Shown: positions 3,616-28,740 of the stretch, piece by piece | How the letters are laid out: each line of letters starts with the position of its first letter | How positions within the stretch are numbered: the first letter of the stretch is position 1 | The notes under the pieces: model-generated | What the model was told of the DNA's origin: nothing | Databases searched by the model: none | Seen by the model: the letters and a program-made list of their open reading frames with translations, nothing else | Program-made: the position numbers and the translations under genes | DNA from: Corythucha ciliata | Lineage: Eukaryota > Arthropoda > Insecta > Hemiptera > Tingidae | DNA: 64,000 nucleotides | Assembly (NCBI GenBank): GCA_038030265.1 | Contig: CM075940.1 | Coordinates: forward strand, 9,486,001-9,550,000 | Reading direction: 5' to 3'

Positions 3616-3623
3616 TATTTTAA

Positions 3624-6997: not shown

Positions 6998-9756
6998 CAG
7001 GGGTGGGCAAATTACAGCTTTTTGAGTAATTAATTACAAATTACAAATTACTTCCAAAAAAGAGGACTAATTACAAATTACAAATTACTTTTCACTCCCA
7101 CAAATAATTACAAATTACAATTACTGTAATTGAATTACTTTTTCAATTACCAATTACCCAAGAGCAGGATTAGGGGGAACACCCAAGCGCCTTGCTCTTG
7201 TTCACTGTCACTTTTTTAGTGCGTCCAGCCAACAATCGAACGTCAGAACAGATCTTTGAGATAGGAAGCAGGAACAGCATAGCCCCAAGATGCCAAACGC
7301 GTCGCATGAGTAGGGTTGCGAAATGTCCGGGATCAAATTTGCTAATTTGGCTAATTTTGCCCCACATCCCGGCCTGCGAACTGTCACGGGGAACCCCGGA
7401 TAGTCATAGTTTGCTAATTTGGCTAATTCGCTAATGGCTGACTCGTGGTCTCGCGATGCAACTTCCAGACCAAAATTAAGAAAAAATCACTAATTCGTGG
7501 TACATGGCGGCCATTTTTACGAATAAATTGTGGAAATCAACGCAAAAGTGTTGTATTTGGGCAAACCCCGCGGTTAAAGTTGAGAAATCACGCTATAATA
7601 TTGACAAATAAAAGACGCTTTCATGTTAAATTGGACCAAAATGACAAATTCACAACTCAAATAGCGTAAAATCGCCCAGTCGCGTATGAAAAAGGGAATA
7701 GGCTGCTGAATGGCCGCAAAATAGCACAAAACGCTATTTCACAGCTGAAATTTGGAAAAATCGCTAATTTGCAATTTGCAGATAAAGTTGTGGAAAAACG
7801 TTAATTCGCGGATACAAAATGAAGAAAATCAGTAATTCGCGGCAAAAATTGAAAAAATCACCTAAAATTAAGAAAAATGTTAATTTTCAGTTCAAATTGG
7901 GGGAAAAGTGCTAATTATCAGTTAAAAATGGAAAAAATTGCTAATTTGCAGCTTAAATTGAGTCAAACGCCGATTCTTGGCAAAAATTGACTAAACTCTG
8001 AAGGTAATACACGGGTTGGAGACGCTACCACGCTACTAAAATTTAGAAAAAGCGAAAATTCCCAGCTAAAATTGAGAAACATCACTAATTCACGAATTAA
8101 GGTGTCGTGAAATTTATAATTTAAAAATGATTATTTTTTGACAGAAATAAATGGATAGATGTAAATTTTTTGGTTTGAAAAAAAAAAAAAATAATAAAAA
8201 TACATTTATAATTCAAATACGCACGTTCTGAAGGCATTTTTGTGGCTAAAATTCAGAAAAATGGCAAATTCATGCATGGCTATAGTACAATGTTAAAAAA
8301 TACGCTAATTCACGGCTAGAACTGAAAAGAAGCAATAATCTATATCTATAAAAGTTATACAACATTGCTAATGCGGTGGTAAACTGTGACAAACTGCTAA
8401 CTTGCGGGTAATATTTAGAAAATAATATAATCAGCATGGTCAAAATTAAGAGAAAGGTTAATTTTAAGCCTAAAAATTGAGAAAACTGCTAATTCGCGGC
8501 TAAGAATGAAAAAAATCGCCAATTTACAGCGAAAAGTGTGCCAGACGCCAATTTGTGACTGAATTTGAGAAAATTCGCTAATTTACAGGTTTGAAACGCT
8601 ACGACACGTCGCCGCTACAATTTTAAAAAAGCGCTAATCGCGGTTGAAATTGAGAAAAATTCTATTTGCACCAAAAACTGAATATACGCTAATTTGCGGA
8701 TTCTGAAGGCAACTTTTCAGGCTGAAATTGAAAAAAAAAAACAAAAAAAACACCGATTTGTGGCAATAGGTGAAGAAACCGCTATTTCGCGTGTAAACTG
8801 ATTGCATTGTGTGCTGACCATGCATTGCGTATGGTGAACCAAAAAATCCTAATTCGTGAAAATTCCCTTTATTTTGCGGCTAATATTGAGGAAAACACTT
8901 AACAAAACGTTAATTTCCAGCTGAAACTGAGAAAAATGCTAATCCCGTGGTAAAAAAAAATTAAAAATCGGTAATATGCTGCTAAAATTGAGGAAAACGC
9001 CAAAACTCGTGGATAACTTAGAAACACTGCTCACGGGATAAAAACGATACTTTGCTGCTAAAGTTGAGAAAATGCGCAAATTCATGGCTGTGGTAGGGGG
9101 TGGGGCAAAACCGCTAATCTGCTGCTGAAATTGAGAAGAACGATACACTCGGCCAAAATTGAGAAAAGCGCTAATTTGCGGGTAGAGTCCAAAAATCGTC
9201 CTTAACTGAGAGATTGAGGCTATGATGAGGTCAGCAAAGTGTCAAGATTGAAGAATGTGCTGGCTGGGTGGAATGATGACTAAAATGTGAAATTACCCGC
9301 CTCCTTTCAACCTTACGAGATTTCAATCTGATCCCCCCCCCCCCAGGTCAAATTCCTACTTACGCCACTGGTTTGGGGTTTCGATCTTTGAAACTTGTGT
9401 ATACCGTTTTTCTCAAATGTCAAATTGGCAACCCCAATCATGGTTGGAGCTCGAGGATATCGCTCGTGTCATAATTGCTTTGAAACTCTTATTTTTCAGA
9501 GAATTTCATGCAAAAACTCCTCCAAAAGCTCCAAGTAAAGCGCGAAATAGTAACCGCTGAGTTTTCAAAGTAAGATTGGCTCTGAATATGGAAATGTAAT
9601 TGGTAATTGTTAATTACAAATTACGTCGAAAAAGTGCTTTTAACTACAAATTACCAATTACAATGGCGTGTTGTTATCAATTACAAATTACCAATTACTA
9701 ATTGTAATTGAATTACGTAATTCAATTACATGTAATTCAATTACTGCCCAGCCCTG
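6998..9756. mobile_element. hAT-like element with 8-bp TSD AATAGGGT
   Basis: A 2,759-bp insertion is flanked by perfect 8-bp duplications AATAGGGT (6990-6997 and 9757-9764). The ends are CAGGGGTGGGCAAATTAC at the left and, reversed, CAGGGCTGGGCAGTAATT at the right. Both ends run into arrays of aattacaaattac units (7025-7160 and 9590-9750). The interior holds a large family 1 minisatellite tract. Removing the insertion restores an ordinary family C repeat (tttttcgtaatagggt joined to actatagtgcgttagga), which is strong support. An 8-bp TSD and CAGGG ends fit the hAT superfamily. No transposase is present, so the element is non-autonomous. Confidence 0.82.
7435..9370 (+). repeat. Family 1 minisatellite array, copy A
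   Basis: Degenerate ~30-35 bp units, each built from gctaattcgcgg followed by ctaaaattgagaaaaa, run for almost 2 kb. The tract is a diverged copy of 20085-22258: both start with tcgtggtctcgcgatgcaa and share poly(C) and tacgccactg at the right edge. The right edge, reversed, reads CAGTGGCGTAAGTAGG, a hAT-like terminus, but no left terminus is seen, so this inner element is truncated. Copy A keeps the uninterrupted TTAA (9202-9205) that is duplicated around a 391-bp insertion in copy B. Confidence 0.75.
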
Positions 9757-9764
9757 AATAGGGT

Positions 9765-10075
9765 ACTATAGTGCGTTAGGACCTCGGTCTCTGTCAAAAA
9801 TTGCTTCGTTGACGAGCTCTATGAACATTCTATTCTCCTGGTCAATGAGGGGCCAAAATATTATCAAAAACTGCGATTTTGCCCCTTTTTTTTAAAGTGT
9901 TATGCGGCGATTTTTCATCTTTCGTAATAGGATGATTCAATGGGCTAGGAGCTCGGCCTCGAACAATTTTTTACACGTGGTTCGTCTGAATGTCCACAAA
10001 ACTCCCACGTCGTTATTAAGCCTTTCATAATGGGCTCAAATTGCTCTGGAAGGTAACATCGGGCCCCCTTTTTTT
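9765..10075 (+). repeat. Family C repeat, right part of split unit
   Basis: This continues the family C unit interrupted at 6997. It reads through gcgttaggacctcgg, cattctattctcctggtca, tgcggcgatttttc, ggagctcggcctc and a degenerate ataatgggctcaaattgc. It joins the left part at 6940-6989 once the element 6998-9756 and one AATAGGGT copy are removed. Confidence 0.65.
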
Positions 10076-10199
10076 CAAGTGTAATGCGGCGACTTTTTTG
10101 GGTTCTAAAAAAGTGAAATTCTGTCAAAATTGTTTTTGGAAGAGGCAATCCCTGGGTTTTAGAGGCATGAAAAAGAGCAAGACTGTGGTACGAAATAAC

Positions 10200-10430
10200 A
10201 AAAATTCTAGAAATTGGGTTTTCAAGGTGCCAAATTTGAAACGTTTGGTTGTGGAAGAGTGAAAATCTCCGTATTTCGCCGAATTAGCTTTTTGAATGAA
10301 GCGAACCTGCGAAACTGATTTTATAAAAGAGCTAAAGCCACGAAAGTTCGGTTTTGAACAGGCAAGAGTCCCCGAAATAGTGTTTTAAAAGAGCCAAGTC
10401 CTCGAAATTGGGTTCCTGACGTTACAATGT
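10200..10430 (+). repeat. Family 3 minisatellite, short tract
   Basis: Several degenerate ~30-bp units follow the pattern cgcgaaattggnttttt then gaagagccaa. The same unit type recurs at 23770-24220, 25030-25480, 27340-27580, 30780-31175, 54720-54985 and 59330-59640. Confidence 0.5.
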
Positions 10431-10436
10431 GTAGGG

Positions 10437-10562
10437 ACCGAAAAGTAGGACAATATAAGAGGACAATTTTGACCTCCCCCTGGACACCTGAAAGAGAAGC
10501 CCGGACGTCCCTGGACGCTCCAAAAAGTAGGACATGTCCGGGTAAAGTAGGATGTCTGGTCA
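10437..10562 (-). mobile_element. hAT-like MITE fragment
   Basis: The right edge, reversed, reads TAGGGTGACCAGACATCC followed by a stretch containing ccggacatgtcc. This resembles the widespread GGGTGACCAGAC-type termini of hAT MITEs, here with T instead of C at the first base. The left edge (gtagggaccgaaaagtagga) is a weaker match, and no convincing 8-bp duplication was found. The assignment rests on the terminal motif alone. Confidence 0.35.
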
Positions 10563-12288
10563 CCCTATAATATTCCTCGGAAAACCGAAAATCTCTCCAC
10601 GTATAGAACCCGCCATTCTGTTGTGGGGTGAACGATAATCTTACACGAGGAAAATTTGTCATTCAGGACAACTCAATTCCGTTTAAATTGTTCTAGAAAA
10701 ACTATTCGTCATGGAAAGTCGGCAGTTTTCTTTCAGGAATTGTGAAACATCGTCGGTTTCGCAATATTTTCATGAGCGAGAATGCCAAATACGTCAGTGG
10801 ATTTGGCGGCATATTACGCGGTTTTTTATTTCTCGCAGAGCTCGACGAGAGCGCCACTAGTTCTCACGATTTTGCGGGAGCCTCTCAATCACGCTTCAAG
10901 AACAAGAACGTGGTTTTGTACACTTTTTTTTTTTGTTGGTGTGATCATCGCGCATTTGGACTTTTTAATTAATTCGCCCTCGAAGCGAAGGGTTTTCTTG
11001 AAGTGACATATCTTTTTGAAGAAATACAGGTGAGTCTCTCACGTTAAATTAAAGTGTTTCCAACGTTCTTGTCATCGCTATGGTCATTGTTTGTTATGCC
11101 CTTTGTCCCTGTTAACTTTTTGCATTTTCTGCAATAAGTCCGTCTTTTATACCGAAGACGCCCTCGCTCATAGTTAGCCCCCGCCCGCCCGGTGATCAAA
11201 GCTTTTAGGGAGAATCAACTCGTTGGAAACAAGTTGAATGGGCGGCGTGTGCCACACCGCTCTAAACTCGGCATTGTCCCACTTGTTTTGTCACATTTCG
11301 TCGATTCCTTCTTTCGCCAGGAACGAGGAGATTGCCGGACGTCTATACGATGATCGTAGGGTTTTGTATTTTTGACCGGTTGTTCGTCCTGGCCCGTGCT
11401 AGTCGGATTGTAATGAAATAGGCAGCTTATTAGTTGATTAATGTTAGTGCCTGATAAGGAGTTATAAGGTCACTAGACGCTAATTCTGTTTTACTCCGAG
11501 GGAATTTGTGAAGTAGTAATTTGATGCCTTCATTTCTTGCAGAGCTGACCTTGTCGGCTTCACAATGACCTTCCAGGGGTACGCCAACGTGGGTGAAGTA
11601 AGACCCCCCCCCCCTACAGAGGAAAGGATCGCCTTTCCTTCATGATTCAACGGAAAACTCAAAATAGCATAGAGATTTGCGACCTCTATGCTGATCACGG
11701 GCCCTAAACCCTTACCTCATCGTCCATTCCACTACAAACTCTTGTAATTCTACCCCCCAAAACCCCTAGGCAAGAAAGGTGTAGGGGGTGAATCGGTCCG
11801 GTTAACAACAGACTAATCCTGTCCAAAATTGACCATTTTATCCAGACTTCATCAATTTTGGTCTGGCTATTGACCCAAATGACAATTTGCTTCTCCCCTC
11901 TGAATTAAGACCATTCTGCTCCTCCCAGAAATGTTTCTTAAGCCCATTTCCTGAGTGACAAGGTCGTCTGGGGGGGAGGGGAGTCCAGTGCGCCCTCAGA
12001 TCCGACAGTTCTCTGTAATCGATCGTTTTGTGTAAGACAACGTAGCACTCGGTCCAGAAGATGTCAGTTGACCACTGAAGCTGACGTTGGATGATTAAGC
12101 TATAACTGACACGATAGCCGTTTCCCCTCTCGAAATTGCTCTGGAAACGGTCAACAGTTTAGACTTGTGCCTGTTGGGGTTGACCATGTCGTGCTTTGCA
12201 TGCATCACCACTTAACGTGTTTGAATCTTGCTTGATCGTGTAAATTGCCATCCAATCAACTTATCCATTTTTTCTTCAATTTTTATAG
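10563..12288 (+). other. NAP1 upstream region, possible 5' UTR exon and intron
   Basis: No coding exon is seen. The first NAP1 coding exon is preceded by a splice acceptor (ttttatag, ending 12288) two bases before the ATG, so at least one non-coding 5' exon must lie upstream. A good donor, gaaatacag/GTGAGT, at 11029-11035 is a plausible partner and would give a ~1.26 kb 5' UTR intron. Transcript data would be needed to prove the pairing. The stretch also holds a poly(C) run near 11604. Confidence 0.35.
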
Positions 12289-12290
12289 AA

Positions 12291-13952
12291 ATGTCGTCCA
12301 AAGCGAACGACAAATCACCGAAATCAAACGCTAGCGAGAGTGACACGAGTGAACCCGCTCAGTTCAACAGTGAAATCGCTTTCGGAATGAAAGATTACAA
12401 TATTTACGAAGTTAGTTACAATTTCTTTCCTTATTTTGTATTGTGGACTTAAACGAGAATTTGTGTGTGGCTCACAGCTTCTTCCAGAGCCGGTTAAACG
12501 TCGTGTGAACGCCCTCAAAAAACTTCAATATCAAGCCACTTTCATCGAAGCTGACTTTTTTGCAGAAGTCCACAAGCTCGAGTGTAAATATCATCAGATG
12601 TACTCTTTACTGTACGATAAGGTAAGTCTTTTGGCCACTTTCCATTCATGGGATGCTCTGCAAAGCCTTTTTTTCCCCTCCCCTACAGAGACAGACAATC
12701 GTATCCGGTGACTACGAACCAACTAACGAAGAGTCTGAATTCAATGAAACGAGTGTGGCGCTTGGGAATATTGAACTTCCTGAAACTCTGCGCACTCAGC
12801 TCAAGAGACACTATAATTACAGTGACATGTATGCAAACTGTGATGCATTTGCTGTGTTTTAAATACCGGCTAATTTTTTTTTTCTTTTGTTTTTTAGTGA
12901 AAGCAATGTCAATGGCGTCCCTAACTTTTGGCTTATAATTTTTAAAAATGTTGAAATCTTGAGTGACATGGTTCAACCTCACGATGAGCCGATCCTGAAG
13001 CATCTTAAGGACGTTCAAGTGAAATATCTTGAAAAAGATCCCATGGTGAGTGATTTTTTTTTTTTTTGCTCATGCCTTTTTCTGGGGAAGAGGGAGGGCG
13101 TGCTGGGCGCTTTTAAACACTCGCCGCTGCTTTTTAGCGAAGTCGGCTTTTACAGGATTCGAACCCAGGGCCTGCTGGGTGCGAAGCGCGCAGTGTATCC
13201 ACTACACCATTGAGTTGAACTGCTCATTTCATAATTTTTCGTCTTTTTGTTTTAGGGTTTCATTCTAGAATTCTACTTTTCTCCAAATAAATACTTCAGT
13301 AACTCAGTTCTCACTAAACGATATGAAATGCGGTGCCAGCCGGACGAGGATGAGCCATTTAGTTTCGAAGGACCAGAAATCTACAAGTGTGAGGTGAGGA
13401 CTCTTATTCTCCGTTGATTAATTGTCCCGATTTTAATAATCAATGAATCTACAGGGGTGTGTAATTAACTGGTTCGAAGGACATAACGTTACCGTGCGAA
13501 CTGTGAAAAAACGGCAGAAACATCGGTCTCACGGAACGTTTAGAACAGTCACTAAAACTCTTCAGAATGATTCTTTTTTCAATTTCTTCTCCCCTCCATC
13601 TGGTAAGAAAACACCTCTGAATTGCCTCACCGTCAAAATATTTTTAAACCGCGGTTGCTCTTTAGTTCCTGACGATGAAAATCAGGACGTTGACGATGAC
13701 ACCAAAGCGCTTTTGACGAGTGACTTCGAGATCGGTCACTACATTCGCGAGAAAATCGTTCCTCGCGCCGTTCTTTATTACACGGGCGAGGCACTCGGTG
13801 ATGAGGACGACGAGTACGAGGAGGATGAAGAGTCGGAAGAGGAGGAGTCGTCGGAGTCGAGTAGCGACAACGAGAATGAAAATAAATCGAAACCGGACAA
13901 AAAGGCGATCGCACCGGGGCAGATGCAACCGCCTGAGTGCAAACAGCAGTGA
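12291..13952 (+). CDS. Nucleosome assembly protein 1 (NAP1/NAP1L)
   Basis: Histone chaperone of the NAP1 family, which in other animals shuttles H2A-H2B and aids nucleosome assembly. The coding exons are 12291-12410, 12478-12621, 12689-12828, 12898-13045, 13256-13393, 13455-13602 and 13666-13952, joined in frame to 374 residues (human NAP1L1 is about 390). Family landmarks in order are PVKRRVNALK (around 45-54), GVPNFWLIIFKN, LSDMVQPHDEPILKHLKD, LEFYFSPNKYF, PFSFEGPEI, a basic loop TVKKRQKHR (~246-254) expected to bear a nuclear localisation signal, NDSFFNFFSPP, DFEIGHYIREKIVPRAVLYY, and an acidic tail from ~325. The protein ends in CKQQ, as NAP1L1 does, a potential prenylation motif. Six introns are 61-69 bp except intron 4 (210 bp), which holds a tRNA-derived relic. 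The exon 3 donor is a weak GTATGC, chosen because only it keeps the frame. The ATG lies 2 bp after a splice acceptor. Confidence 0.95.
13150..13217 (-). tRNA. tRNA-derived relic in NAP1 intron 4
   Basis: On the - strand there is an A-box match TGGTGTAGTGG (13209-13199) and a B-box match GGGTTCGAATCC (13166-13155). The D-stem pairs perfectly (GTGT with ACAC). The presumed anticodon loop reads CTTCGCA, giving TCG (Arg-like), but the anticodon stem and acceptor stem do not pair and the T-stem is poor. This is therefore a tRNA pseudogene or the head of a tRNA-derived SINE, not a functional tRNA. It sits inside the only long intron of NAP1, antisense to the gene. Confidence 0.55.
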
Positions 13953-14256
13953 TTTGACTGCATTTTCTCTTCCTTAATTTTAATTTCTCTTAATTTTTTG
14001 TCTCGATCGACGCTAGGTTTATCCATGGGGGACTGGTTCAGCATTTTATGCCACGGGTGGAACGTTTTTTTTTTTTTTTTTTTTAAAAAACGGTTGATTA
14101 TTTTACCGTTGCGGCCCAAAAAAAAAAAACAGCTCCTGTTTCAAAGAAAAGTCACGTGTGCACCGCGGCAAAAAAGTTCATTTTTAGAGCCGTGAGAGAT
14201 GGCTCGGCTTCACTTCTCCCGTCCCTAAAAGAAATCAATTTCTTGCCTCGGTGCCC

Positions 14257-14262
14257 AATAAA
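14257..14262 (+). terminator. NAP1 polyadenylation signal
   Basis: A canonical AATAAA lies 305 bp after the NAP1 stop codon and is followed by a T/A-rich stretch. It is the first canonical signal on the + strand suitable for NAP1 before the convergent CHMP2A gene. Confidence 0.6.
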
Positions 14263-14883
14263 ACAATTTATATATATTTCTTGGAAATCACTGAGTGTCC
14301 AATGTTTATGTTAGATGAATGCCATTAGTTACTGTCCCTAGATTCGACCCGAAATTGATCATTCGAGCGTCATATTTCATTAATTTTGGAAATACAGCCT
14401 CATCAACGAACAGAGGCAAATACATTTTTAAATATTAATTTATTGCTTTTATTATCCTTGGCTTCGAGAAGCGCTTACCATGATAGGCAGCATCCAAAGT
14501 TGCGGAGGGGCGAGGATGAAAATTGCGTCGACGCGTACCACTATCGCTTTGTTACCAGTCGTGACTACGCGATCAGAGGAATAGACACTCCTAGTGTAAT
14601 AAGTGGCAATGGGGGGGGGGGGCATCCATACGAGCGCAGCCGAAATCCCTAACTTATTTATTTACAGATATCTCAGCAAATTATACTAGAGATGAACAAT
14701 AGTTCCCCCAAGAAGTTATTAAACCACAATTAATTATAGAACGTCACCGAAGATGGAAAGTAAAGATAAGAGGCAATACATTAAAATAGTTTTAATAATA
14801 AATGATTTAAATTAGGAGACTGGCATCAGTACAATAACCACAATTGAATAAGAACAAATTTCAATTTCTTTCTCGCCAAGAAT
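14263..14883. other. Intergenic spacer between convergent genes
   Basis: This is the tail-to-tail gap of NAP1 and CHMP2A. It contains - strand AATAAA signals at 14444-14439 and 14453-14448, and another overlapping the CHMP2A stop codon (14888-14883), any of which could end CHMP2A transcripts. A run of about 12 G lies near 14611. The 88-codon open frame over 14386-14652 shows no recognisable protein. Confidence 0.5.
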
Positions 14884-16331: not shown

Positions 16332-16337
16332 TTCGAG

Positions 16338-16421
16338 CTATTGACGGAATTTAAACTTGTTAAGCACAGGGCGAGTAAAAACTTATAATTAAACTTTTTA
16401 AAACTTCATTTTCTTACTTAC
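16338..16421 (-). other. Putative CHMP2A 5' UTR intron
   Basis: A strong donor GTAAGTAAG starts at 16421 on the - strand and an acceptor caatag ends at 16338, six bases before the ATG. The resulting 84-bp intron matches the size class of the other introns of this gene. No transcript is available to confirm it. Confidence 0.4.
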
Positions 16422-16588
16422 ATAATGTTAATTCACAGTCCTCGTCAACAAAGATTTGCCAAATGAGTCATAATCTTGACAAACGGTGAATCCCTCTCTG
16501 ATAGCGCTACAAGGTGCGTGATAACATTGAATGACTAATCGGGAGGGGACCGTCGGGCATAGGCAACCCGCAACACATCACTTCCTGA

Positions 16589-16596
16589 TGACGTCA
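16589..16596. promoter_or_regulatory. Consensus CRE/ATF palindrome
   Basis: The perfect palindrome TGACGTCA lies about 260 bp upstream of the CHMP2A ATG, in the expected promoter zone given a short 5' UTR intron. CREB/ATF family proteins bind this sequence in animals. Use in this gene is inferred from position only. Confidence 0.5.
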
Positions 16597-17475
16597 GCTG
16601 CACACTTAACGGTGGCGCGGATTCTCAGGTAGGCGTTTCACGTTTGTTCAAGTTTTTGAGAAGAAATGACCTAGCGGTGCAAGTAACTGGCAATAAGTCA
16701 TAAAAGCGTGAAAATCAGAAGCCCAAAGAGTCGTAGAAAGGCAAAATTTGGGAGTTACAACGGTTGGTCGTTGAATAAAACTTTTGGCATTTAGCTTTCA
16801 CGCAATTTTAGTCCATTCAGTCAGGCAATTTAGAGCACAAATAACAAGTAAATGCAGTGGAAACGAGCTAAAAACCAAAACTAACAGAACAAAGTACCAA
16901 GACGGGTCCTGATGATTTTGTCGTTTTTGCGATGAATGTAACGTACATGTCTTCCTCATTTTGTGAAACCAGAAGGTTAGCAGTTTTCTCCAATGTATTT
17001 TTGAGTCAATAATTTGCCATGATCACTTAGGCGTTAGAAGAACGATTTTTGCGATTTTGGGGGCATTTTTTTCAAGTGTTTCGATTTGATCTGGCGGATC
17101 TACACCTATCGGGGCCCCGGGCGGAAATCACTCTAATTGTAAGTCTCTATGTAACGGTCCAGCTTATCCTAAATCCTCAATTCACCCAAAATATCAAAGT
17201 TAATAAATTAGTAACCCTCCCCTTCGTCCCATCCTAAATTCCCAATACAAAGAAACCGCCCCCAATTCCCCGCCATCACCAACTGTGCGAATTGAGGGCA
17301 AAGGAAATTCGGCGGCGTGAGAACCTGCAACGGTCAGCAGACCCAAAAACAGGGGCGTAGGTACGGGGGATGATAGATCCCCCCCCCCAGAGCCACAAGT
17401 ATTCGAACGAAGGAGCACTAGTACCATAACGAAGAGCCCCATAAAATCTCCATGAGCGTTTCACGTTGAAGTAAG

Positions 17476-18811
17476 CAGTGGCGTGCCCAGGAATTTTTCT
17501 TGGGAGGAGTTTTCAAATTACAAAATTATATGTATATAAAATGGTGATTTTTTTGACAGAAATGGTTGGGAGGGGGGGTCCTTTATAGTCAATTCTGCGC
17601 CAATAGTCAATTCATCTTTTAAGGGCGCGAATAGCCAGTTTGGCAATTTTTTCGGTGCAGCATGGCACAAATCGTCATTTAAGCCATCTATACGAGGCGC
17701 GAATGATCAGTTCCGGTATTTCTAAGGCACGAACTGTCCGCAGTTTCACCGTTTTCAAGCCGCGGAGGATCAGTTTTTTTTTGGGTGCCGATAGCCACTT
17801 TGAAGACGCGCATGCAGTAGCCTCTGTATAGGGCGCAAATGATCTGTTTAGCTAATCTTTGGACCGTGAATTTGTGGTACGAGTATGCCATTTTTAGGAC
17901 TTAAAGAGTCAGTTTTGCTATTTTTATGGAACGAATCGTCAGTTTAGACATTTTCAGGGCACGAGGTTCAGTTTGGCCATTTTCGATGCTGGATAATGGT
18001 TGATTTTGCATTTTCAGGGCATGAATCATCCGTTTCGGACCTTTCAAAGCGCGAATCTCGCGGGCCGCTATACGGCGGTCAGTTATGCTGTTTTTAGAGC
18101 GAGAAATTTCTATTTTTCTAAGCGCTAATGGTCAGTTTGGCCAATTTAAGGACAGGAATCGTCTGTTTAGGCATTTTAAAGGCGTGAATCGTCAGTTAAT
18201 CTATTTTTAGAGCGCACAGAGTCAGTTTTGCATCAGTCCTTGCATAGTCAGTTTGGCCAATTTTAGGGCGCATAGTCTTGAAGCTTGACATTTATACATA
18301 TAGGGCGTCAAACCAAGGCGATTTTTAGCGTGCGACTGGTCGAATTTGCCATTTTCAGGGCGCGAATCGTCAGTTATACTTTGCTCAAACATAGCAGCAT
18401 AGGCGGGTCCAATTAGTACCTTCTAGCCATTTACGCACGAATCGTTATTTTGACCATTCTTGGCGCGCAAATGGTTTATTTTGCAGCTTTCAAGACAGGA
18501 ATAATCTATTAAGGCATTTCCAGGCCGCCTAGAGTCATTTTGGCCATTTTAGAGCGAGAATCGCCAATTTGGCTATTTTTAGGGCTCGTGAAGTCATTTT
18601 GGCGGTTTTATAGAGTGGTAAATGCCAATTTTTAGGGCGCAAATATAGACATTTTAAATGCAAGAATCGTCAGTTTTGCCATTTGCGGGCGCGACTATAG
18701 TCAATTTAGCAGTTTTTAGGTACCTAGTGAATTACTGTCCTGTCAAGCCATTTTTAGTCAGTCTAGCGAAGCACACAATCTTCCAAGCCCAAGCCCCTAG
18801 TTGTTGTTGTT

Positions 18812-18852
<41 letters not shown>

Positions 18853-19895
18853 ACACGAACACGAATGTTAAATTTAGACATTGTGAAGGCTCATTTTGGC
18901 TATTTTTGACGTGCGAATGGTCGTTTCTGCCATTCTCAGGTCAGGAATAATCTGTTTATAAACTATCTATGTGCTAAACTCTCTATGCCCTTGTTCTGGG
19001 GCACATAGAATCGGTGTTGCCGATTTTGTGGCTTGACTGTCCAGTCTGGCCATTTTTAGGGCACGTAGAGTCAGTTTTGCCATTTATATAGGGCGTGAAT
19101 AGTACGTCAAGTCATGGCGCGAAAACCGTCAGTTTGGCCAATTTTGGCGCGCGGGTGGTTGATTTTTGCCATTTTTGGAGGAGGAATCATCTGTTCAGGC
19201 ATTATCAGTGCACAAATTGCCAATTGATCCAGTTTTATGACTCTTAAAAGAAGTCAGCTTGGACAATTTCAGAGCGGGAATCACATGCCCCCTTATTCTG
19301 TAACTCTTAACGCGTGCGTTAGCGAAATCAACAAGACGAATAATTTTAAAAAATCAGCTGAGAAATTTTGCTAACGCACACGTTATGAGTTACAGAATAG
19401 GTCCACAGCTTGGCTATTTTTAGCGCACTTATGTATAATCAGTTTAGCTTTTTTCAAGGCGGAATCAGTTTTAGCCATTTTCAGGGAGCGTGAAGTCAGT
19501 TTGGCTATTTTTATGGCTCAAATAGTTAGTTTTGCCATTTTGGGGCGCGAGTATAGTCAGTCTAGGATTCTGTATGGTGGGGATAGCTAATTTAGCTAAT
19601 TTTAGGCAGCAAATAGTAGAATTTCTCAAGCCCCTCTCTCTTGAACAAATCCCGAATCCATGCCTGGACAGTGGAATAGTTACTTAGTGGGACTAATTGC
19701 TAAAAAACGAACTTTTAGGGTTAAACAAATCACGTTTTTGTTGTTTCTTTTGTTTGTTTCTTTTTTTACTTGTTTACTTATTCATTTTATTTAATTAATT
19801 TATTTATTTTTTATTTCTTTTTCTTAACGATGGTCGGCTGAAGTACTCTGGGAGGGGTTCTGACCCCCAAAATCCTCCCCATGGGCACGCCACTG
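17476..19895. mobile_element. hAT-like element carrying family 2 minisatellite
   Basis: This 2,420-bp element has 14-bp identical inverted ends CAGTGGCGTGCCCA and 8-bp flanks GAAGTAAG (17468-17475) and GAAGTTAG (19896-19903), one mismatch. Almost the whole interior (about 17580-19640) is a degenerate ~30-36 bp repeat with the pattern gggcgcgaatcgtcag followed by tttggccattttta. A 36-base poly(T) lies at 18813-18848. There is no transposase. A small foldback element (19292-19400) sits within the array. The element lies inside the outer element 17350-22258. Confidence 0.82.
19292..19400. mobile_element. Short foldback MITE (TTATTCTGTAAC ends)
   Basis: Inverted arms of about 36 bp, cttattctgtaactcttaac then gcgtgcgttagc on the left, mirror gctaacgcacacg then ttatgagttacagaatagg on the right, with a ~40-bp loop. 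Total length is about 110 bp. It interrupts the family 2 array. The superfamily is not determined and no clear TSD is visible. Confidence 0.6.
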
Positions 19896-20084
19896 GAAGT
19901 TAGGTTTAGCAGATTTTCTGGACTTGAAGCAGCCCGAAAAGGCCCGAGTGCGTCCAGCATTTTCCTTGGACTTCAGACCCAACGCAGTAGTGTACCGAGG
20001 TACCTGGGGGGGGGGGGGGAATTCGCCCCGGACCCTCTATCAGACAAAAATTGGTAATATTCGTGGTTGTAGCTGCTAAAAAGC

Positions 20085-22258
20085 GCTGATTCGTGGTCTC
20101 GCGATGCAATTTCCAGACTAAAATTAAGAACAAAATCGCTGATTCGCGGTACATGGAGGCCATTCTTCGAATAAGTTGTGGAAATCAACGCAAAAGTGTT
20201 GTATTTGGGCAAACCCCGCGGTTAAAGTTGAGAAAACACGTTATAATATTGACAAATAAAAGACGCTTTCTGGTTAAAATTGGACAAAAATGGTAAATTC
20301 ACGACTGAAATGGCGTAAAATCGCCCATTCGCGTATGAAAAAGGGAATAGGATGCTGAATGGCCGCAAAATTAGCACAAAACGCTATTTCACAGCTGAAA
20401 TTGGGAAAAATCGCTAATTTGCAATTTGTAGATATAAAGTTATGGAAAAACGTTAATTCGCGGATACAAAATCACTAATTCGCGGCAACTATTGAAAAAA
20501 TCACCAATTAGCGCAGCTAAAATTATGAAAAACGTTAATTTTCAGTTCAAATTGGGGAAAAGAGCTAATTCTCAGTTTAAATTGGAAAAAATTGCTAATT
20601 TGCTGCTTAAATTGAATCAAACGCCAATTCTTGGCAAAAATTGACAAAACTCGGTAGGTAATGCACGGGTTGGAGACGCTACCACGCTTCTAAAATTTGG
20701 AAAAAGCAAAAATTCACAGCTAAAATTGAGTAACATCACTAATTCTCGAATTAAGTGTCGTGAAATTTATAATTTAAAAATGATTATTTTTTGACAGAAA
20801 TGGATGGATAGATGTAAATTTTTTGGTTTGGGGGAAATAAAAATACATTTATAATTTGAACTCGCACCTTCTGAAGGCATTTTTGTGGCTAAAATTCAGA
20901 AAAATGGCAAGTTCATGCATGGCTATGGTATAAAGTTAAAAAATACGCTAATTCACGGCTAGAACTGAAAAGAAGCAATAATCTATACGTATAAAAGTTG
21001 TATAAAATGGCAATGCAGTGGTAAAATGTGAAAAACCGCTAATTTGCGGGTAATATTTAGAAAATAAAATAATTAGCCTGGTCAAAATTAAGAGAAAGGT
21101 TAATTTTAAGCCTAAAATTTGAGAAAATTGCTAATTCGCGGCTAAAAATGGAAAAAATCGCCAATTTACAGCTAAAATTGCGCCAGACGCCAATTTGTGA
21201 CTGAAATTGAGAAAATTCGCTAATTCACAGGTTTGAAACGCTAAGACGCGTCGCCACTACAATTTTTAAAAAACGCTAATTCGCGGTTGAAATTGAGAAA
21301 AATTCTTATTTGCACCAAAAACTGAATATACGCCAATTTGCGGATTCTGAAGGCAACTTTTCAGGCTGAAATTGAAAAAAAGCGCCAATTTATGGCAATA
21401 GGTAAAGAAACCGTTAATTCGCGAGTAAACTGAGAAAAATCGCTCATGCATTGCGTATGGTGAACCAAAAAAATCCTAATTCGTGATTGAGGCTAATATT
21501 GAGGAAAACACCAAAACTCGTGGATAATTAAGAAACATCTCTCACAGGATAAAAACAGGATAAAAAGCGCAAATTCATGGCTATGGGAGGGGGTGGGGCA
21601 AAACCGCTAATCTGCGGGTTGAAATTGAGAAGAACGAAACACTCGGCCAAAATTGAGAAAAGCGCTAATTTGCGGGTAGAGTCCAAAAATCGCCCTTAAA
21701 GGTGGAGTTGTACATGTGTTTACTCGACCCCCCTCCAATCATACGTCGCCTACTCCACGTTACGGAAATTATCGCCGTATTTCTGCACCAATCGTGGACT
21801 TCAAGGGCTCATTTAAATCTTCAGGAAATTCCGCACAACCGATCTTGCTTTCCTAAATAAGTCGTCGAAAGAGTGCGAATTTTCAAGGTAAAAGTTTATG
21901 TGCGTTTTACAGTTATTTTAAGGATGAAATATGAAAAAGGAAGATCGTACAGTTGTGCGGAATTTCCTGAAGATTTAAATGAGCCCTTGAAGTCCAGAAT
22001 TGGTGCAGAAATACGGCAGTAATTTCTATAACGCAGAGTTGGCGATGTATGATTGGAGGGGGGTCGAGGAAACACATGTGCAACTCCCCCTTAACTGAGA
22101 GATTGAGGCTATGATGAGGCCAGCAAGATGTGCAGATTCAAGAGTGTGCTGGCTGGGTGGAATGATGACTAAAATGTGAAATTACCCCCCTCCCCTCACC
22201 CTTATGAGATTTCAATATGATCCCCCCCCCTCAGGACAAATCCCTACCTACGCCACTG
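20085..22258 (+). repeat. Family 1 minisatellite array, copy B
   Basis: Diverged copy of 7435-9370. Its units follow the pattern gctaattcgcgg, then ctaaaattgagaaaaa. The order of recognisable variants is the same as in copy A (for example tgttgtatttgggcaaaccc, ttctgaaggcatttttgtgg and gcgtatggtgaacc), so the two are whole-element copies, not independent arrays. It contains a 391-bp insertion (21700-22090) absent from copy A. Confidence 0.75.
21700..22090. mobile_element. TTAA-flanked foldback MITE (piggyBac-like target)
   Basis: A 391-bp segment lies between two TTAA copies (21696-21699 and 22091-22094). The two ends are inverted: the left reads AGGTGGAGTTGTACATGTG, and the right, reversed, reads GGGGGAGTTGCACATGTG. 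The long arms (~150 bp each) continue through cggaaattatcgccgtattt-like and aaatcttcaggaaattccgc matches. The homologous site in copy A (9202-9205) has a single TTAA in the same flanks, an exact empty site. TTAA targeting with precise duplication fits piggyBac-mobilised MITEs. No coding capacity. Confidence 0.85.
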
Positions 22259-23401
22259 CCCAAAAATATATAAGCGGGTGCAGCTCTGGACTAGTGGACT
22301 CGCGCTCGCTTCGGTCTGGCTTGTCAACTTGTCGCCACACGCTCGGTCCAATTAAGTCTCCCATGCTGCTGCCCCCCCCCCCCCCCACAGTCATCCTCCA
22401 AGTCTCCCCATCCCGTGCCAAGTCTCCCGCGGTTCAGGAATTGTGAATAAATTGTACAAATATTAAGTGTAGTCGTGTCGTAAAATAAACCTAGTTAAGT
22501 CTCCGCGTCCGTCATTCAAATCGTGCCCCTTCACAGTTACCCTTTTCCCCGATTTCCTTTCCTGGGCCGGCCTAACGAGCCACCCTCGTTTCCACCCGTC
22601 ACATCTATATAAACAAGAAATATAGTTTTTATGTATCGTTGAACTATGGCCTTTTAATTATTTTAGACACGAATTATCACTATTTCCACACCCTATATCG
22701 CCAATTAGTGCTTATGCCCAGTTATTAAGACGCAAATTTCTTAACTTTAGCCGCGAATAAATTATTTGTGTCATCTTCACCCTCAAATTACCGCATTTCT
22801 CAATTTCAACCGTGGATTAGGGGTTTTGACCCCCCCCCCCCCAATAGCCATGAATTTGCGATTTTTCTCTAATTTAGCAGCAAAGTAGCGTTTTTATCCC
22901 GTGAATTAGCGATTTTTCACAATTTTCCACGAGTTGGCGTCCTCCTAAACTTTATATGAAAAATTAACGATTTTTTCATATTTTTTTAGCTGGGAATTAT
23001 CACTTTTTTAAATTTTTTCCGTTTCGTTTTTTTTTCCGTAACGTTTTCCTCAATATTAGTCGCAAAATTCGCCTATTTCATGATTCGGGCAGCGCCGTCG
23101 TTGGCCACTTGGGAGCTAGCTCATATGGGCAGTCTTCTTCTAGTTTCTAATGGAGACTACCTACAACAACAGTTTCCCTAAATGGCCAACTACAGCGCTG
23201 TCTGAATTATGAAATAGGCGAATAGTGGTTTGTAAAAAAAAAATTGCCACAAATGAGCATTTTTTTGTTCATGACATTCTCTATGGATAAGCAATTTTTC
23301 TCAATTTTAGCCACGAATTGGCGTTTTCCGCAATATTATCTTCAAATTGGCGATTTTCTCATTTTTAGCAGCGAATTAGCATTTTTTCTCAATTCAAGCT
23401 G

Positions 23402-25902
23402 CAGGGGCGTAACGTGACATTTTGATGCCCGGAGCGGTGGTCATGGTAAATCCCCCCCGCTATTATCAAAAAATGCGAGTATCGGGCTACTTGCCTCAAT
23501 CGGAAATCATCCAGGGCTTTCAGGGTTCTCGGGGAAAATTTTCTCCCAAACATCGTATTCGATTTACCTGGGAAGGACCTATTTAACATATACGCTTTTT
23601 CCGAAACAAACAGACCGGCGTGGTATCGGATTGACATATTCTTGGCGTGGGAATGTTTCTCGGGACAAAAATCGGCAGTTTCATAGTCCCTGTGAGCTAG
23701 ATTTTCAGTAATTAAGCCAATATGATGTAGGTACGATCAAAGATTGGGGGAGGGGTATGTTCCGGAGAAGACCAACTTCACGAGAATGGGTCTTCAAGAA
23801 ACCGATTTCGTGGGGTTTAATCGTTGAAAAAAACAATCTTGAGGGTTTGGCTCTGTAGAAAAAAAAGTCATGAGCTCGGCTTACATGAAAAACTCAAACA
23901 TTGAGGGTCCGGCTTTTCGAAACGGGTTTAACTCCTGAAACCCCTTATTTGGTGGATTGACTCTGAGTAGAACCAACTTCACAGGTTTTGCGCTTCAATA
24001 AACCAATCTCAAGGGATTTTGTCGTTCAAAAAACCGATCTTGAGGGTTAGTATCTTCAAACAATAGAATTCGCGGAACTTGGCAGTTGGCATACTCAAAA
24101 TACAAATTTTGCGGGTTATTTTACGGATTGGGCTCTCCATAAAAACAAATTTTCCTCCTTTGGTTAATCAAAAGAACTCAATTCCGTGAGGTTGGCTCTG
24201 TCAAATTCTTCCAGTTTAACTTGGCGTGTGGAGGGACCGAGCGTGTTTGCGTGGAACACTGACCGGTTGTGGGATGCAACTCGCAGCTTCTGGCACGCTC
24301 TGTCCAGTTCTTAGACTGTTTTGCCTCCAAAGAGAGCGATGGCATCACCAAGACTTAGCTTTCCGTCAACTTCATTGCAGTTTTTACGCCTCCTCCCCAC
24401 TAACTGGCAGCCATTATACTGTTATTGGGGGTGCCCTGGTCTGCAATCGACCATTTTGTGCGGTTTTGGTGCCTCTTGGTAGACCTGAAGCAGTGGCGGC
24501 GAAAGTCAGACGGCATTGGGGGAGCAAAAATCCGAGCAGTTGAATTTTGCCCCCCCCCAATCCATGAATTATAAAGTTAAAGAGTCATTTATGTATTAGA
24601 GAGAGAGAGAGAGTGAGTGAGAGTCACTTGGACGTGAATTAGCGTTCGTTCTCTATTTCATCCGCGAATCAGCGCTTGGTTTTTTGCAATTTTATCCGTA
24701 TATAATGAGCGCTTATATTATGAGCGCTTTTTCTCAAATTTCAGCCACGAATTAGCGCTTTTTCTCAATTTTAACTGTAAATTGTAGAGCATTGTCTCAA
24801 GTTTGGCCGCGAATTACCGTATTTCTCAATTTTACCCTTCAAAAAACGCCTTTTTTCAATTTCAGACACAAATTAGCGGTTTTTCTAAATTTCAAAATTT
24901 TCAGGGGCTCCATCCGAAGGCCGCTAGGAGGCGCTATCTGTCCCCCTCGCCCCTTTATCGAAACACTAGAGTCCCTGAAATACTTTTTGACTTTTTCACT
25001 ACTTATTTAAACCCAAGCTCTGATTTCGCACTTTAAAAAATAATTTTCGTGGGGTCGGCCTCACCAAAACCCAAATTTTACTGGTTATAGATATATCGCG
25101 GAATCCAATTTCGCGGACTTCACTCACCCAAAAAGCCCACCCGGGAGACGAAACAGTTAATTCCCGAGACACCTTCCTCTTCTTGGTGGTTTTGTTCATG
25201 GCTAGAACATGTGGTTTTCATAAGCTTTAAACCCGCATTTTGGGGATTTGGCGCTTTGAAAAGTCCAATTTTGCGGGATTTACCCTTTCAACACCCCAAT
25301 TTTGTGGATTAGATGTCACAACACCCAATTTCACTGGTTTCCGCCTACCCAAACATTCAAGAACGAGATTTCGTGGCGTTAGCTCATTAAAACCCAATTT
25401 TTCGGGTCTGGCTCACCGAAAAAAAAATCGCAATTTGGCGGGTTTCGCTGCATCAAAAACAAAATTTCACACTATTGACCCCTTCGCAGTAACTCTCACA
25501 CCACCCTCTGTGCAAAAGGGAAGTCTGTCAGGAAAAAGAGGAAATTGTATACGCTCTTATAATAAATAAGTTGTGGATCGATAATTTTTAGAGAAGCGAA
25601 TTTAAAGTGAACCCATTCTTTTTTTCAATTCATGGGGAGCACCGCTCCCCCAACCAGACCATTGGGGGAGCATTCGCTCTCCCTGAACCTCACTTCCGCT
25701 GCCACTGACCTGAAGCCACAATTTCTATCACGGAGCATCTGACAACTATGGGCACTGGGCAGTTGAATAGATGTGGATTTTTTTGTACCGGTGGTGCGCA
25801 AAAGGACTCTATAGTTATCCCAACTGTGCTCGGTTTATTTAACATATTCACATTTCAAGAGATGCCCGAGGCTCACCCCCCCCCCCATACGCTACGCCAC
25901 TG
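23402..25902. mobile_element. hAT-like element, TSD TCAAGCTG
   Basis: The left end is CAGGGGCGTAACGTG and the right end, reversed, is CAGTGGCGTAGCGTATGGGG. Perfect 8-bp duplications TCAAGCTG flank it (23394-23401, 25903-25910). The left body (23770-24220) contains family 3 units such as aaaccgatttcgtgg. A second hAT-like element (24491-25707) is nested inside, so the original element was about 1.28 kb. It inserted into the inverted family 1 array. No transposase frame is present. Confidence 0.8.
24491..25707. mobile_element. hAT-like element, TSD ACCTGAAG, innermost
   Basis: This 1,217-bp element has ends CAGTGGCGGCGAAAGTCAG and, reversed, CAGTGGCAGCGGAAGTGAGG. Both run into a shared ttgggggagc segment. 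Perfect 8-bp duplications ACCTGAAG flank it (24483-24490, 25708-25715). Inside are a short inverted family 1 tract (24640-24900) and a family 3 tract (25030-25480). Its right terminus closely matches the one at 59256. It lies within element 23402-25902. Confidence 0.82.
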
Positions 25903-26689
25903 TCAAGCTGTACATTAGCCTTTTTCTTAATTTTAGTCAGGCTAATTATTGATTTTCTCAATACTACCCACAAATTAACGTTTTTTTACGCTTCCTCTCG
26001 GTTTTAGCCGCGAACCAGCGGTTTTTTTGTATACATGATTTTGCCGCTTTTCTCAATTTTATCCAAAAAGTTACCTTCAGAAGGCGCGTATTCAACTTGG
26101 AAATTTTGCCACAATTTATCCGCGAATTAGTGATTTTACACAATTTTGACCGCAAATTAGCGCTTTTTCTCAATTTTGCTGCCAATTTCCCATTCTTAGC
26201 AGGGAATTAGCACTTTTTCTCTATTTGAGCTGAAAATTAGCGGGGTTTTATTTTTCGACGCGCTAATTTTTAGTGATTTTTTCAATATTAGCCGCTTTTT
26301 TAACATTGTAGTCCCGCATTGGCATTTTTCCTCCAATTTTTGCTACGGATTAGCCTTTTTTTTTAGATTGTAGCCCCGCATAAACAATTGTTTTTATTTC
26401 TGTTACGGATTAGCGCTGTTTTTCAGTTTTAGCCTCACAGCTTTCAGAAGCCAGGGATTTGCGTTTTCTGAATTTTTGCTGCGAATTAGAGATTTTCTTC
26501 ATTTGCATCCGCGCATTAACGTTTTTCCTATAAACTTCATCCGCGAATTAGCATTTTTTATCAAGCGCGCATTCGAGACTGAAATTAAGAAAAAACGCAC
26601 ATTGACAACTAAAATTGACCCTGATATAACGAACTCTGCGTTATAATCAACAAGCAATTTTAAGGTCCCCTGATGTTGACAACCAGCTG

Positions 26690-27286
26690 CCGGAGTGATA
26701 TTTCTATTTTCTGTCGTTCGAATTCGTTTCCTGTCGTTCAAATCTTTCTTCTGTCGTTAAATCAAAATTTTTTCGTGCATCAAAGTCATTTTTAGTCGTG
26801 CTTTTCCCCTTTTCTGTCGTGGAATTAAATGGCACCCATTCATATAGAGCCGAATCCAATAATTTCTGTTCTTGAAGGATTTTCCATGCAGTACAAAAAT
26901 TGGGAGCCTCATTCACCTTGCGAAAAAAAAAAAAAAAAATCGTTGGTATATCCCCCAAAAAAGTGTGGTCCTATAAATAGAACTTTCACTCACATTCAAC
27001 TCAGAAACGGGAAATTCAGTCCCATTTTATTTCAATGCTCGGTAAATAGAACCTAAACTTGAGCCCCGGACACCGACTATTTGGCCCCAAGGACTGGCTG
27101 TTTTGCTTTGAAACGTGAACTTAGGTCCCAAAAGAGACAACTCTGACTTCTAACTTCGCAGTTTGGAGACAGAAAATCTCCTGGTTGATTTGATTATTTT
27201 CTGGTCAATTTTGTGGGATAAAAAGATTATTTCCGAGCCGAAAAAGTCAAACACCCACTAGTCCATACTAAATCTGCGCCTATCGA
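26690..27286 (-). other. Short ctgtcgtt array and unassigned flank
   Basis: At 26708-26820 a motif ttctgtcgttnaaat repeats about five times, a small degenerate tandem array unlike families 1-3. A poly(A) run lies near 26924-26939. The rest, up to the left flank of the next element, shows nothing identifiable. Confidence 0.4.
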
Positions 27287-28740
27287 CAGGGCCGTCTTTA
27301 TTAAAGTTGGGGGCCCGGGATAACAGTGGGCCCCCTCTTTTACCGAATTTTGCTCACTATAACACATTTTGTATCTGATATAGTAATTTCACGGGTTTTA
27401 CACACTGGAACACCATTTTTGCAGGTCTGACTCACTAAAAAAAAACATGTTTGCTGATTTCGCACTCTAAAAACCATTTCGCGGATTTTTCTCACTAAAA
27501 CCAAATTTTCGCGGTTCTGACTCACAGAAAACCCAGTCGTGGTTGTTCTACTGCTGACAAACAAATTTTGCGGCTGTTTGTTGCTGAAAAACTATTCGCC
27601 TCCACGACGGAAGAGTCCAGTTTGGGGGACTTGGAATACCGCAGTTACCATTCCACAGGGCCTTCCGACCAAAATTCAGAAATAGAATGCACAAAATACA
27701 GTTTTACAGCAGAGATGTTATAGGTTTTAACAGTTCACGACCCTTTAACTATGCTAATTCAGTTTCTGGGGTCGAATTGACGATTTCTCGCTTCGATTTA
27801 CCTCGCGTTATAATTGATGAGCTACCGAGTTCTCTTTCTGGTTACTCATCCCCCCCCCCCTTGCTGCAAGGGCTGAGAGCCCTTGTTCTCATTTCTAGCG
27901 GCAGTTATCACTTGTTCTTAATTATGGCAATGAATGTGCGATTGTTTCACATTTAGTTATGCGAGTTAGCGCTTTTTCCCCATTTTAGCAGTGAGTTAGC
28001 GATTTTTCTAAATTTTATGGTGCCGGGTTGATTTTTGCGTGCATCAGTAAATTAAGATGCCCCGCAAATTATCGCTTTTTTTCAAATTTAGCCGCACATT
28101 AGAGCTTTATTGAAATTATTTCATATTTAGTCATGAGTTAGCACTTTTTCTCATTTTTAGCCGTGAATTAGCACTTCTCAATTTAGACCACGAATATATG
28201 ATTTTATCAGATTTAGCCATGCTGCCGCATAGCGCTTTTTCCTCATTTTAGCATCGAATTAGCAATTTTCCTCAATTTTAGCAGCAAACTGCGAATCTAT
28301 GCTGCTAAAATTGGGAAAAATCACTAATTCACCGATAAAATGGGGGGGGGGGGAAGCACTAACCACTCAAAGTTAAATGTGAAGATATTGAAAATTCATG
28401 TCGAAAAAACAAGTAATTTTTTCCCGTTTTAGCAGCGAATAAACGGTGTATTCACACATACCTATGAATTGGCGCTTTTTTCTCAATTTTAACCGAGAAT
28501 CAAGGTTTATCTCTATTTTGAGCGCGGATTAGCTAAGGGGCCCCTCATCACTTTTTGCCCCTCATCCCTTCATCATTGTGCTAATGGTTCCGCATCATAA
28601 ACAAAAACCCTAAAACATTCAGTCTCATGAAAAAATAAATATTTTATTTTAGGTTCGATCAACGTTGGTCGCCTATCCATAGAAGATTCCATATTAGAAA
28701 AAAGATCTGAAGAATCCGGGGCCCCCTTGACCTATCGGGG
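27287..28740. mobile_element. Probable hAT-like element, TSD CCTATCGA
   Basis: The left end CAGGGCCGTCTTTATTAAAG follows CCTATCGA (27279-27286), and the same 8-mer recurs at 28741-28748. About 20 bp inside each edge the ends share an inverted gggggcccnggat segment. The extreme right end (cctatcgggg) does not match the left CAGGG, so the right terminus is altered or the boundary is slightly off. Contents are a family 3 tract (27340-27580) and an inverted family 1 tract (27950-28510), the same two-part structure as in 24491-25707. Confidence 0.5.

What the first reader, a model, noticed from the sequence alone, without database searches (positions are those of the whole stretch)
6998..28740. 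hAT-like elements that carry minisatellites as their body
At least five elements with CAGNGG-type ends and mostly perfect 8-bp TSDs (6998-9756, 17350-22258, 17476-19895, 23402-25902, 24491-25707, probably also 27287-28740) contain little besides degenerate 30-36 bp arrays. This suggests satellite-like arrays are spread as cargo of hAT transposition, then expand or decay in place. The three array families recur together in specific elements (family 3 with inverted family 1 in 24491-25707 and in 27287-28740), so the arrangement is heritable. I know of no named system of this kind with three distinct arrays, though novelty cannot be tested here.
Basis: partly seen in the sequence, partly recalled or inferred. 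Interest (0 to 1): 0.88.

Follow-up and report, generated by a model that had tools for sequence, protein, structure and literature searches.

The report
hAT transposons carrying decayed minisatellite arrays

Summary
The sixth, 27287-28740, has a TSD-like repeat but no matching ends.
Families C (6 of 7 other fetched copies with a perfect new TSD), B and E (homology stops at the element ends) are multi-copy units.
The bodies are three 30-bp minisatellites that fill 15.0% (SE 3.2) of 260 sampled kb. TRF called 7.9% of their window bases.
Arrays of a kind share one consensus. Neighbouring F1 units are no more alike than units of different arrays (0.601 both). So arrays were probably uniform when made, then decayed by point mutation. 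"Expand in place" is not supported. Younger hAT bursts copied arrays already degenerate, partly by nesting (B in A, C in B, E in D, D in an array).
Only 1 of 41 sampled array blocks has hAT-like ends on both sides, so hAT as first spreader is likely, not shown.
Closest known: oyster Cg_HINE Helentrons. New variant of a known kind.

The parts
6998..9756 (+). Family A hAT-type element, CAGGGGTGGGCA ends, TSD AATAGGGT; its array belongs to a nested, left-truncated family B copy (right end 9370, target GTTTGGGG)
   Evidence: ends, TSD; 88% to 20085-21511 and 89% for 9200-9370 vs 22089-22258; the same nesting in two other copies
7458..9197 (+). F1 array (30-bp unit GCTAATTCGCGGCTAAAATTGAGAAAAATC)
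17350..22258 (+). Family B hAT-type element, CAGGGGCGTAGGTA ends, TSD CCCAAAAA, interrupted by family C and by an inverted-repeat MITE-like insert (about 21695-22096)
   Evidence: 39 other places, 87-92% identical, among 40 scored; TSDs of other copies
17476..19895 (+). Family C hAT-type element, CAGTGGCGTGCCCA ends, TSD GAAGTAAG/GAAGTTAG, body mostly F2 array; inserted in family B
17614..19581 (+). F2 array (30-bp unit GTCAGTTTGGCCATTTTTAGGGCGCGAATC)
19985..20307 (+). Older hAT-like 5' domain 'G5' (CAGTAGTGTACCGAGG...) running into the F1 array; related domains precede F1 arrays at other sampled loci, mostly 62-71% identical
   Evidence: no paired 3' end found
20058..21691 (+). F1 array inside family B
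22694..23404 (-). F1 array, left part; interrupted by family D
25901..26619 (-). F1 array, right part; joins the left part in register when D and one TSD copy are left out
23402..25902 (+). Family D hAT-type element, CAGGGGCGTAACGT ends, TSD TCAAGCTG, inserted into an existing F1 array
23768..24215 (+). F3 array (30-bp unit AAAACCAATTTCGCGGGTTTTGGCTCATTA) of family D
   Evidence: part of the D left end is followed by F3 in L018 too, in two near-identical copies
24491..25707 (+). Family E hAT-type element, CAGTGGCGGCGAAAGT ends, TSD ACCTGAAG, nested in D; body = inverted F1 then F3
24627..24896 (-). F1 array of family E
25037..25471 (+). F3 array of family E
27287..28740 (.). F3 then inverted F1; 8-bp direct repeat CCTATCGA but ends do not match: boundary unproven
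30793..32719 (+). Inverted F3 then F1 array with a hAT-like right end (CAGAGGCGTAGAGTTAGG on the - strand); left end not found
59981..61254 (+). hAT-like left end (CAGGGGTGGCCAGCCC) and 5' domain 'H', then F1 array; a related pair at L009 7121-8644
   Evidence: right end not found

Best explanation
These are non-autonomous hAT-type DNA transposons whose bodies are pieces of three old 30-bp minisatellites (F1, F2, F3). Shown: families B, C and E are multi-copy insertions with inherited array bodies; new 8-bp TSDs for B and C; nesting of B in A, C in B, E in D and D in an F1 array; one consensus per array kind with a star-like relationship of units. Inferred history: (1) uniform arrays of one unit each were scattered over the genome, probably already inside several hAT families, since hAT-like 5' domains of about the arrays' own divergence adjoin some of them; (2) the arrays then turned over little and came to differ from the consensus at about a quarter of positions by ordinary point mutation; (3) younger hAT bursts re-copied the worn arrays as fixed bodies, and hATs landing in arrays or in other hATs made composites that travelled as one (B within A). 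The arrays need not do anything for the transposon: they are passengers defined by where the ends happen to lie. The moving enzyme would be a hAT transposase encoded elsewhere (not found here).
For: TIR/TSD scan with decoys. Family C: 6 of 7 other fetched copies have 8/8 TSDs, each a different sequence (L003 read by eye), copies 91.5-95.3% alike. Family B: 39 other places at 87-92% among 40 scored of 5,743 candidates. Ends of 5 copies were read: 2 have 8/8 TSDs, 1 has 7/8 (by eye), and 2 show B at target GTTTGGGG in sequence that matches the inside of element A. Family E: homology stops at the element ends. Arrays: 38,939 of 260,000 sampled bases; reversed-sequence control 4/1/2 hits against 608/139/140 (window included). 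One consensus in 17 F1 arrays. F1 units 0.601 alike when adjacent and 0.601 between arrays; F2 0.588 and 0.584, F3 0.564 and 0.555. Substitution pattern broadly like that of decaying C copies: non-CpG ts/tv 0.74 vs 0.97, CpG 1.51 vs 1.22. D lies in register inside an F1 array. Window-derived, I and G5 termini lie within 700 bp of an array in 32 of 36 hits, with 45% as the ceiling of sequence that close; 10 of 14 when C copies, L003 and seed loci are set aside (my count).
Against: Only 1 of 41 sampled array blocks has inward hAT-like ends on both sides within 700 bp. Strict pairing in L009-L028 found no convincing element enclosing an array (one weak candidate, L024 4832-9953); L029-L034 were not scanned that way. 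Inward versus outward end motifs near blocks, window included, are 15 vs 7 at 600 bp, 10 vs 5 at 400, 18 vs 11 at 1000, but 5 vs 5 at 200. The G5 model was built from array flanks and its last columns are array, so closeness is partly built in for six of its eight hits. G5 and H have no TSD-paired right end. F2 and F3 units 10 or more apart in one array are slightly more alike than units of different arrays (0.599 vs 0.584, 0.585 vs 0.555). No transposase was found.
Confidence: 0.6

Rival explanations
1. The arrays are an independent dispersed satellite (spread, for example, as extrachromosomal circles or by another element), and hATs merely inserted into them and picked up pieces. Carriage by hATs is then a minor, late effect.
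For: D sits in register inside an F1 array; the L015 element nearly so (best offset -1, then 0). Of 7 family C copies, L008 has F1 array on both sides and L005 mostly on one. Most sampled arrays lack two hAT ends. Uniform arrays at the start fit circle-derived arrays as well as transposon-borne ones.
Against: hAT-like 5' domains of similar age adjoin some F1 arrays: 8 of 8 G5 hits in window plus sample lie within 51 bp of an array, but six of them built the model, and at L009 the array is inverted; H twice. Of the 7 C copies three have no array within 250 bp. No other carrier was noticed, but none was tested for.
Confidence: 0.29
2. The arrays are working parts of the hATs, for example subterminal transposase-binding repeats that any family needs, like the repeats inside Galileo's inverted ends.
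For: Different families hold the same units, close to one end. F1 and F2 align better than 150 of 150 shuffles, and all three units hold a CGCG core (seen directly).
Against: In F1 the CGCG core is less conserved (60-64%) than all other positions but one (position 29, 55%; the rest 66-83%), so there is no sign of constraint on it. F1-F3 and F2-F3 alignments were reached by 31 and 37 of 150 shuffles; ungapped F2-F3 by 5 of 150. Array orientation differs between and within families.
Confidence: 0.07
3. Each array grew in place inside its own element by slippage or unequal exchange.
For: Longer duplications do exist, such as the shift of about 880 bp in L014 3014-5023.
Against: Neighbouring units are hardly more alike than units of other arrays (F1 0.601 vs 0.601; F2 0.588 vs 0.584, F3 0.564 vs 0.555). 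In simulation about 45 or more duplications per 50-unit array would be visible, fewer might not. Copies of C differ by few indels near unit length.
Confidence: 0.04

Closest known systems
Cg_HINE non-autonomous Helentrons of the Pacific oyster (PMC7492417; outline, abstract and sections 6 and 7 read)
   Same: Dispersed short tandem arrays are the central body of many non-autonomous DNA transposon families; exceptionally two kinds of array lie in order; flanks identify the carrier
   Different: Carrier there is Helentron (subTIRs, palindrome); here 8-bp TSDs and CAGNGG TIRs. Oyster monomers differ by 8.5-21% within clusters and group into distinct clusters with homogeneous arrays, some related to each other; here three 30-bp units recur beside several different hAT-type ends, differ by about a quarter from consensus and show no clear array-specific homogenisation
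Tetris foldback element of Drosophila virilis (PMC4079207; passages read)
   Same: Non-autonomous DNA transposon with internal tandem repeats and TSDs of 8-10 bp linked to satellite arrays
   Different: About 220-bp repeats lie inside its inverted ends and were proposed to seed satellites; here 30-bp arrays lie between short TIRs and look older than the bursts that copy them
Galileo (P superfamily), tandem repeats within TIRs with extra transposase-binding sites (as cited in PMC4079207 passages; Galileo papers themselves not read)
   Same: Tandem repeats inside a cut-and-paste transposon
   Different: There the repeats hold binding sites in the TIRs; here no constraint on a core site is seen
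Pearl/CvA of bivalves, SGM, Xmix/Xstir, Tc1-mariner MITE with miDNA4 (table passages of PMC9659126)
   Same: Non-autonomous class II elements connected with satellite or minisatellite arrays
   Different: No hAT case stands in the part of the table that I saw, nor one shared between several TIR families

Membership tests
hAT superfamily DNA transposons (non-autonomous) | 8-bp target site duplication | tested here: met
   5 window elements at 7-8 of 8 with decoy control; 6 of 7 other C copies at 8/8; 2 of 5 B copies at 8/8 and 1 at 7/8
   11-15 of 16 TIR matches in the five elements; not met by 27287-28740
hAT superfamily DNA transposons (non-autonomous) | A hAT transposase in the genome with matching ends | not tested
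   The PF05699 search of the genome did not complete (and repeats). No hAT-like frame caught my eye in the first 60 residues of the 30 longest of 200 frames, which is no test
Helitron/Helentron (Cg_HINE type) | No target site duplication (recalled); subTIR and 3' palindrome in place of TIRs (PMC7492417) | tested here: not met
   TSDs and TIRs present; subTIRs and palindromes were not searched for
Foldback transposons (Tetris, Galileo type) | Long inverted ends that contain the tandem repeats | tested here: not met
   C has one-way F2 between short ends. L014 shows F3+ F1- F1+ F3- order, but no bounded element was shown there
Classical satellite DNA | Long arrays kept alike by concerted evolution | tested here: not met
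   Sampled blocks 0.15-6.3 kb (stretches were 10 kb, so longer arrays could not be seen) with star-like units

The most novel reading that the evidence does not exclude
In this lineage different hAT families repeatedly took up the same small set of 30-bp minisatellites as their bodies, so that a library of arrays was exchanged among transposon families (by nesting, composite formation or gap repair between arrays) and came to make up about 15% of the genome: a shared-cargo economy between TIR families rather than one carrier per satellite.
Probability: 0.3. Interest if true: 0.75.

Novelty: new variant of a known kind. Interest (0 to 1): 0.55.

Why it matters
If it holds genome-wide, a large share of this genome is a repeat class that Tandem Repeats Finder mostly misses (949 of 11,954 array bases in the window lie in its rows of period 28-62) and that transposon annotation may leave unclassified. 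It would extend the idea that DNA transposons spread satellite-like arrays from Helentrons to hATs, and it suggests a way to read age: arrays that are star-like across loci are older than the bursts that copy them. Because the same arrays recur in several families, it makes the question of how transposons swap internal sequence testable in one genome.

Tried and rejected
Chance matches: rejected by decoy TSD offsets and the reversed-sequence control. 27287-28740 as a sixth element: not accepted. In-place expansion: disfavoured on lag profiles with a simulated positive control. An error-prone array-making process: considered because transversions outnumber transitions in units (2500 to 1917), but in C copies the two are equal in number (324 each), so no special process is needed. 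Common descent of all three units: only F1-F2 clearly exceeds shuffles. Finding the right end or TSD of G5 and H failed; L026 2801-5326 gave an 8/8 repeat and a shared GGCGTCTAT near both ends but shifted TIRs, so it is only suggestive. Autonomous hAT: none found; the domain search did not complete. Frames of the sample showed retroelement-like and one P/THAP-like frame to the eye (recalled, not searched). Organism identity was not established. Literature: no title or abstract opening in the listings reports a hAT with a satellite body (one search listed no paper); most of those papers were not opened. No paper printing three stretches of the F1 unit was found. PMC3879986 (Donax MITEs) is not held. 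Passages only were seen of PMC9659126, PMC4079207, PMC2871265 and PMC10048060. The partial I-type hits in L021 and L031 (4) are internal stretches without array nearby and count against that terminus as a marker.

Rows dropped before counts: arrays of 40 bits or less; F1 units with fewer than 24 aligned or 15 matching positions, F2/F3 units under 80% aligned or half matching; alignment blocks under 22 of 30 matches; self and secondary pieces of the genome matches. Units were aligned to the consensus, which biases their identity to it upward; the comparison of near and far units is treated alike.
Full report
Setting. I take it to be eukaryotic from its size and a NAP-family exon.

The elements. 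The sixth has a TSD-like repeat but no matching ends. They are nested: C lies in B, E lies in D, a left-truncated copy of B lies in A, and D lies in an F1 array whose 30-bp register fits best at offset 0 when D and one TSD copy are left out.

They move as families. C: a genome search scored 40 of 7,110 candidates. Seven other copies were fetched; all seven match C over nearly its whole length, six have an 8/8 TSD (L004 has a damaged left end), and copies are 91.5-95.3% alike. B: 39 other places, 87-92% identical, among 40 scored of 5,743 candidates. Reading the ends of five copies gave TSDs TTCTCAGA and TTCTTCCG at 8/8, TCTCAAAA/TCTTAAAA at 7/8 (by eye), and two copies with B at target GTTTGGGG whose flanks match the inside of element A (78-93% identity), as in the window. 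The outer ends of those two A copies were not read. E: homology of other copies begins at query 87-92 (12 matches; element start 92) and ends at 1308-1309 (14 matches; element end 1308). Both array parts are matched, at 73-89% identity for matches of 200 bits or more (40 of 2,415 candidates scored). E looks older than B and C.

The arrays. Three units of 30 bp account for the bodies: F1 GCTAATTCGCGGCTAAAATTGAGAAAAATC, F2 GTCAGTTTGGCCATTTTTAGGGCGCGAATC, F3 AAAACCAATTTCGCGGGTTTTGGCTCATTA. In the sample F1 covers 27,408 bases (28 arrays, 13 of 26 loci), F2 5,336 (6 arrays, 5 loci) and F3 6,195 (16 arrays, 10 loci): 15.0% in all, SE 3.2%, or 14.2% if chromosomes are weighted by length. The reversed-sequence control gave 4, 1 and 2 hits against 608, 139 and 140 (window included). 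The profiles were trained on the window and L009-L028; of the six later loci four hold arrays, L032 only a short one. Arrays are scarcer in chromosome middles: 6.9% of bases in the inner 40% (12 loci) against 21.9% outside (14 loci), Spearman 0.50, p 0.01. The best-scoring places of C and E lean to the arms too, those of B do not clearly (KS p 1.4e-7, 0.005, 0.25). That test was made after seeing the data.

How the arrays got so worn. Each of the 17 F1 arrays examined yields the same consensus (one has one undecided base), although units are on average only 0.73-0.79 like it (14 arrays). F1 units next to each other are 0.601 alike, units 20 or more apart 0.596, units from different arrays 0.601. 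F2: 0.588, 0.599 at 10 or more apart, 0.584 between arrays; F3: 0.564, 0.585, 0.555; their array consensus units differ at up to three positions. Simulation shows that many local duplications during decay would have been seen, a few would not. Substitutions in units resemble those between copies of C. So arrays were probably uniform when made, then decayed independently, with little turnover. The degenerate array of C was then copied as a fixed sequence.

What carried them first. Older hAT-like 5' domains precede a number of F1 arrays. G5 (CAGTAGCGTACCGAGG...) occurs at L013, L014, L015, L020, L026, L033 and in B, 62-71% identical in most pairs compared, and at L009 with the array inverted. 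H (CAGGGGTGGCCAGCCC...) occurs at 59981 and L009. A CAGGGGTGGGCAAGATACTTG end stands beside the arrays of L019 and, damaged, L022. Six of the eight G5 hits built the G5 model, whose last columns are array; L033 and L009 are new, and L003 has the domain cut by an inserted C. Termini from the window, I and G5 lie within 700 bp of an array in 32 of 36 hits. Of the 36, 14 are C ends in loci fetched for C and 8 fall on L003 or on loci that built the G5 or I queries; of the other 14, 10 are near arrays (two of them near-identical copies in L018) and four partial, internal I-type hits are not. Against this, only 1 of 41 sampled blocks has inward ends on both sides, and G5 and H have no paired right end. 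I therefore hold hAT as original spreader likely but unproven. On rechecking I lowered the best explanation from 0.62 to 0.60 and raised the independent-satellite rival from 0.27 to 0.29, because closeness of G5 to arrays is partly built into its model.

Relation to the literature. Tandem arrays as bodies of non-autonomous DNA transposons are known, best from oyster Helentrons (PMC7492417: abstract, sections 6 and 7 read). The carrier, the 30-bp units recurring in several TIR families and the star-like decay differ. No title or abstract opening in my listings reports a hAT case; most subscription journals are not in that library.

Limits.

Noticed in passing
window 13440-13952 (+): Exon of a nucleosome assembly protein (NAP, PF00956, E 1.6e-32), so the window is genic.
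   Followed up: partly
window 19284-19412 and 21695-22096: Two inverted-repeat MITE-like inserts, one inside element C and one inside element B.
   Followed up: partly
window 2520-4719: A 1.1-kb sequence occurs twice in direct tandem order at 98% identity.
   Followed up: no
window 38203-38389: A 187-bp hAT-like mini-element with an 8/8 TSD (CTTTCTCT) and 14/16 TIR match, without array.
   Followed up: no
L015 5964-7840: Foldback-like element with inverted ends of about 605 bp, CAGGGTGTTCGG termini and a 7/8 TSD, inserted in an F1 array.
   Followed up: partly
L014 576-6848: Mirror-like order F3+ F1- F1+ F3- over 6.3 kb with a G5 domain between the two F1 blocks, plus a duplication shifted by about 880 bp inside the F1 array.
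   Followed up: partly
L009-L034: F1-F3 arrays are rarer in chromosome middles than in the arms of the sample.
   Followed up: partly
L012 8053-9087 (+): A long open frame that looks P-element/THAP transposase-like by eye (recalled, not searched).
   Followed up: no
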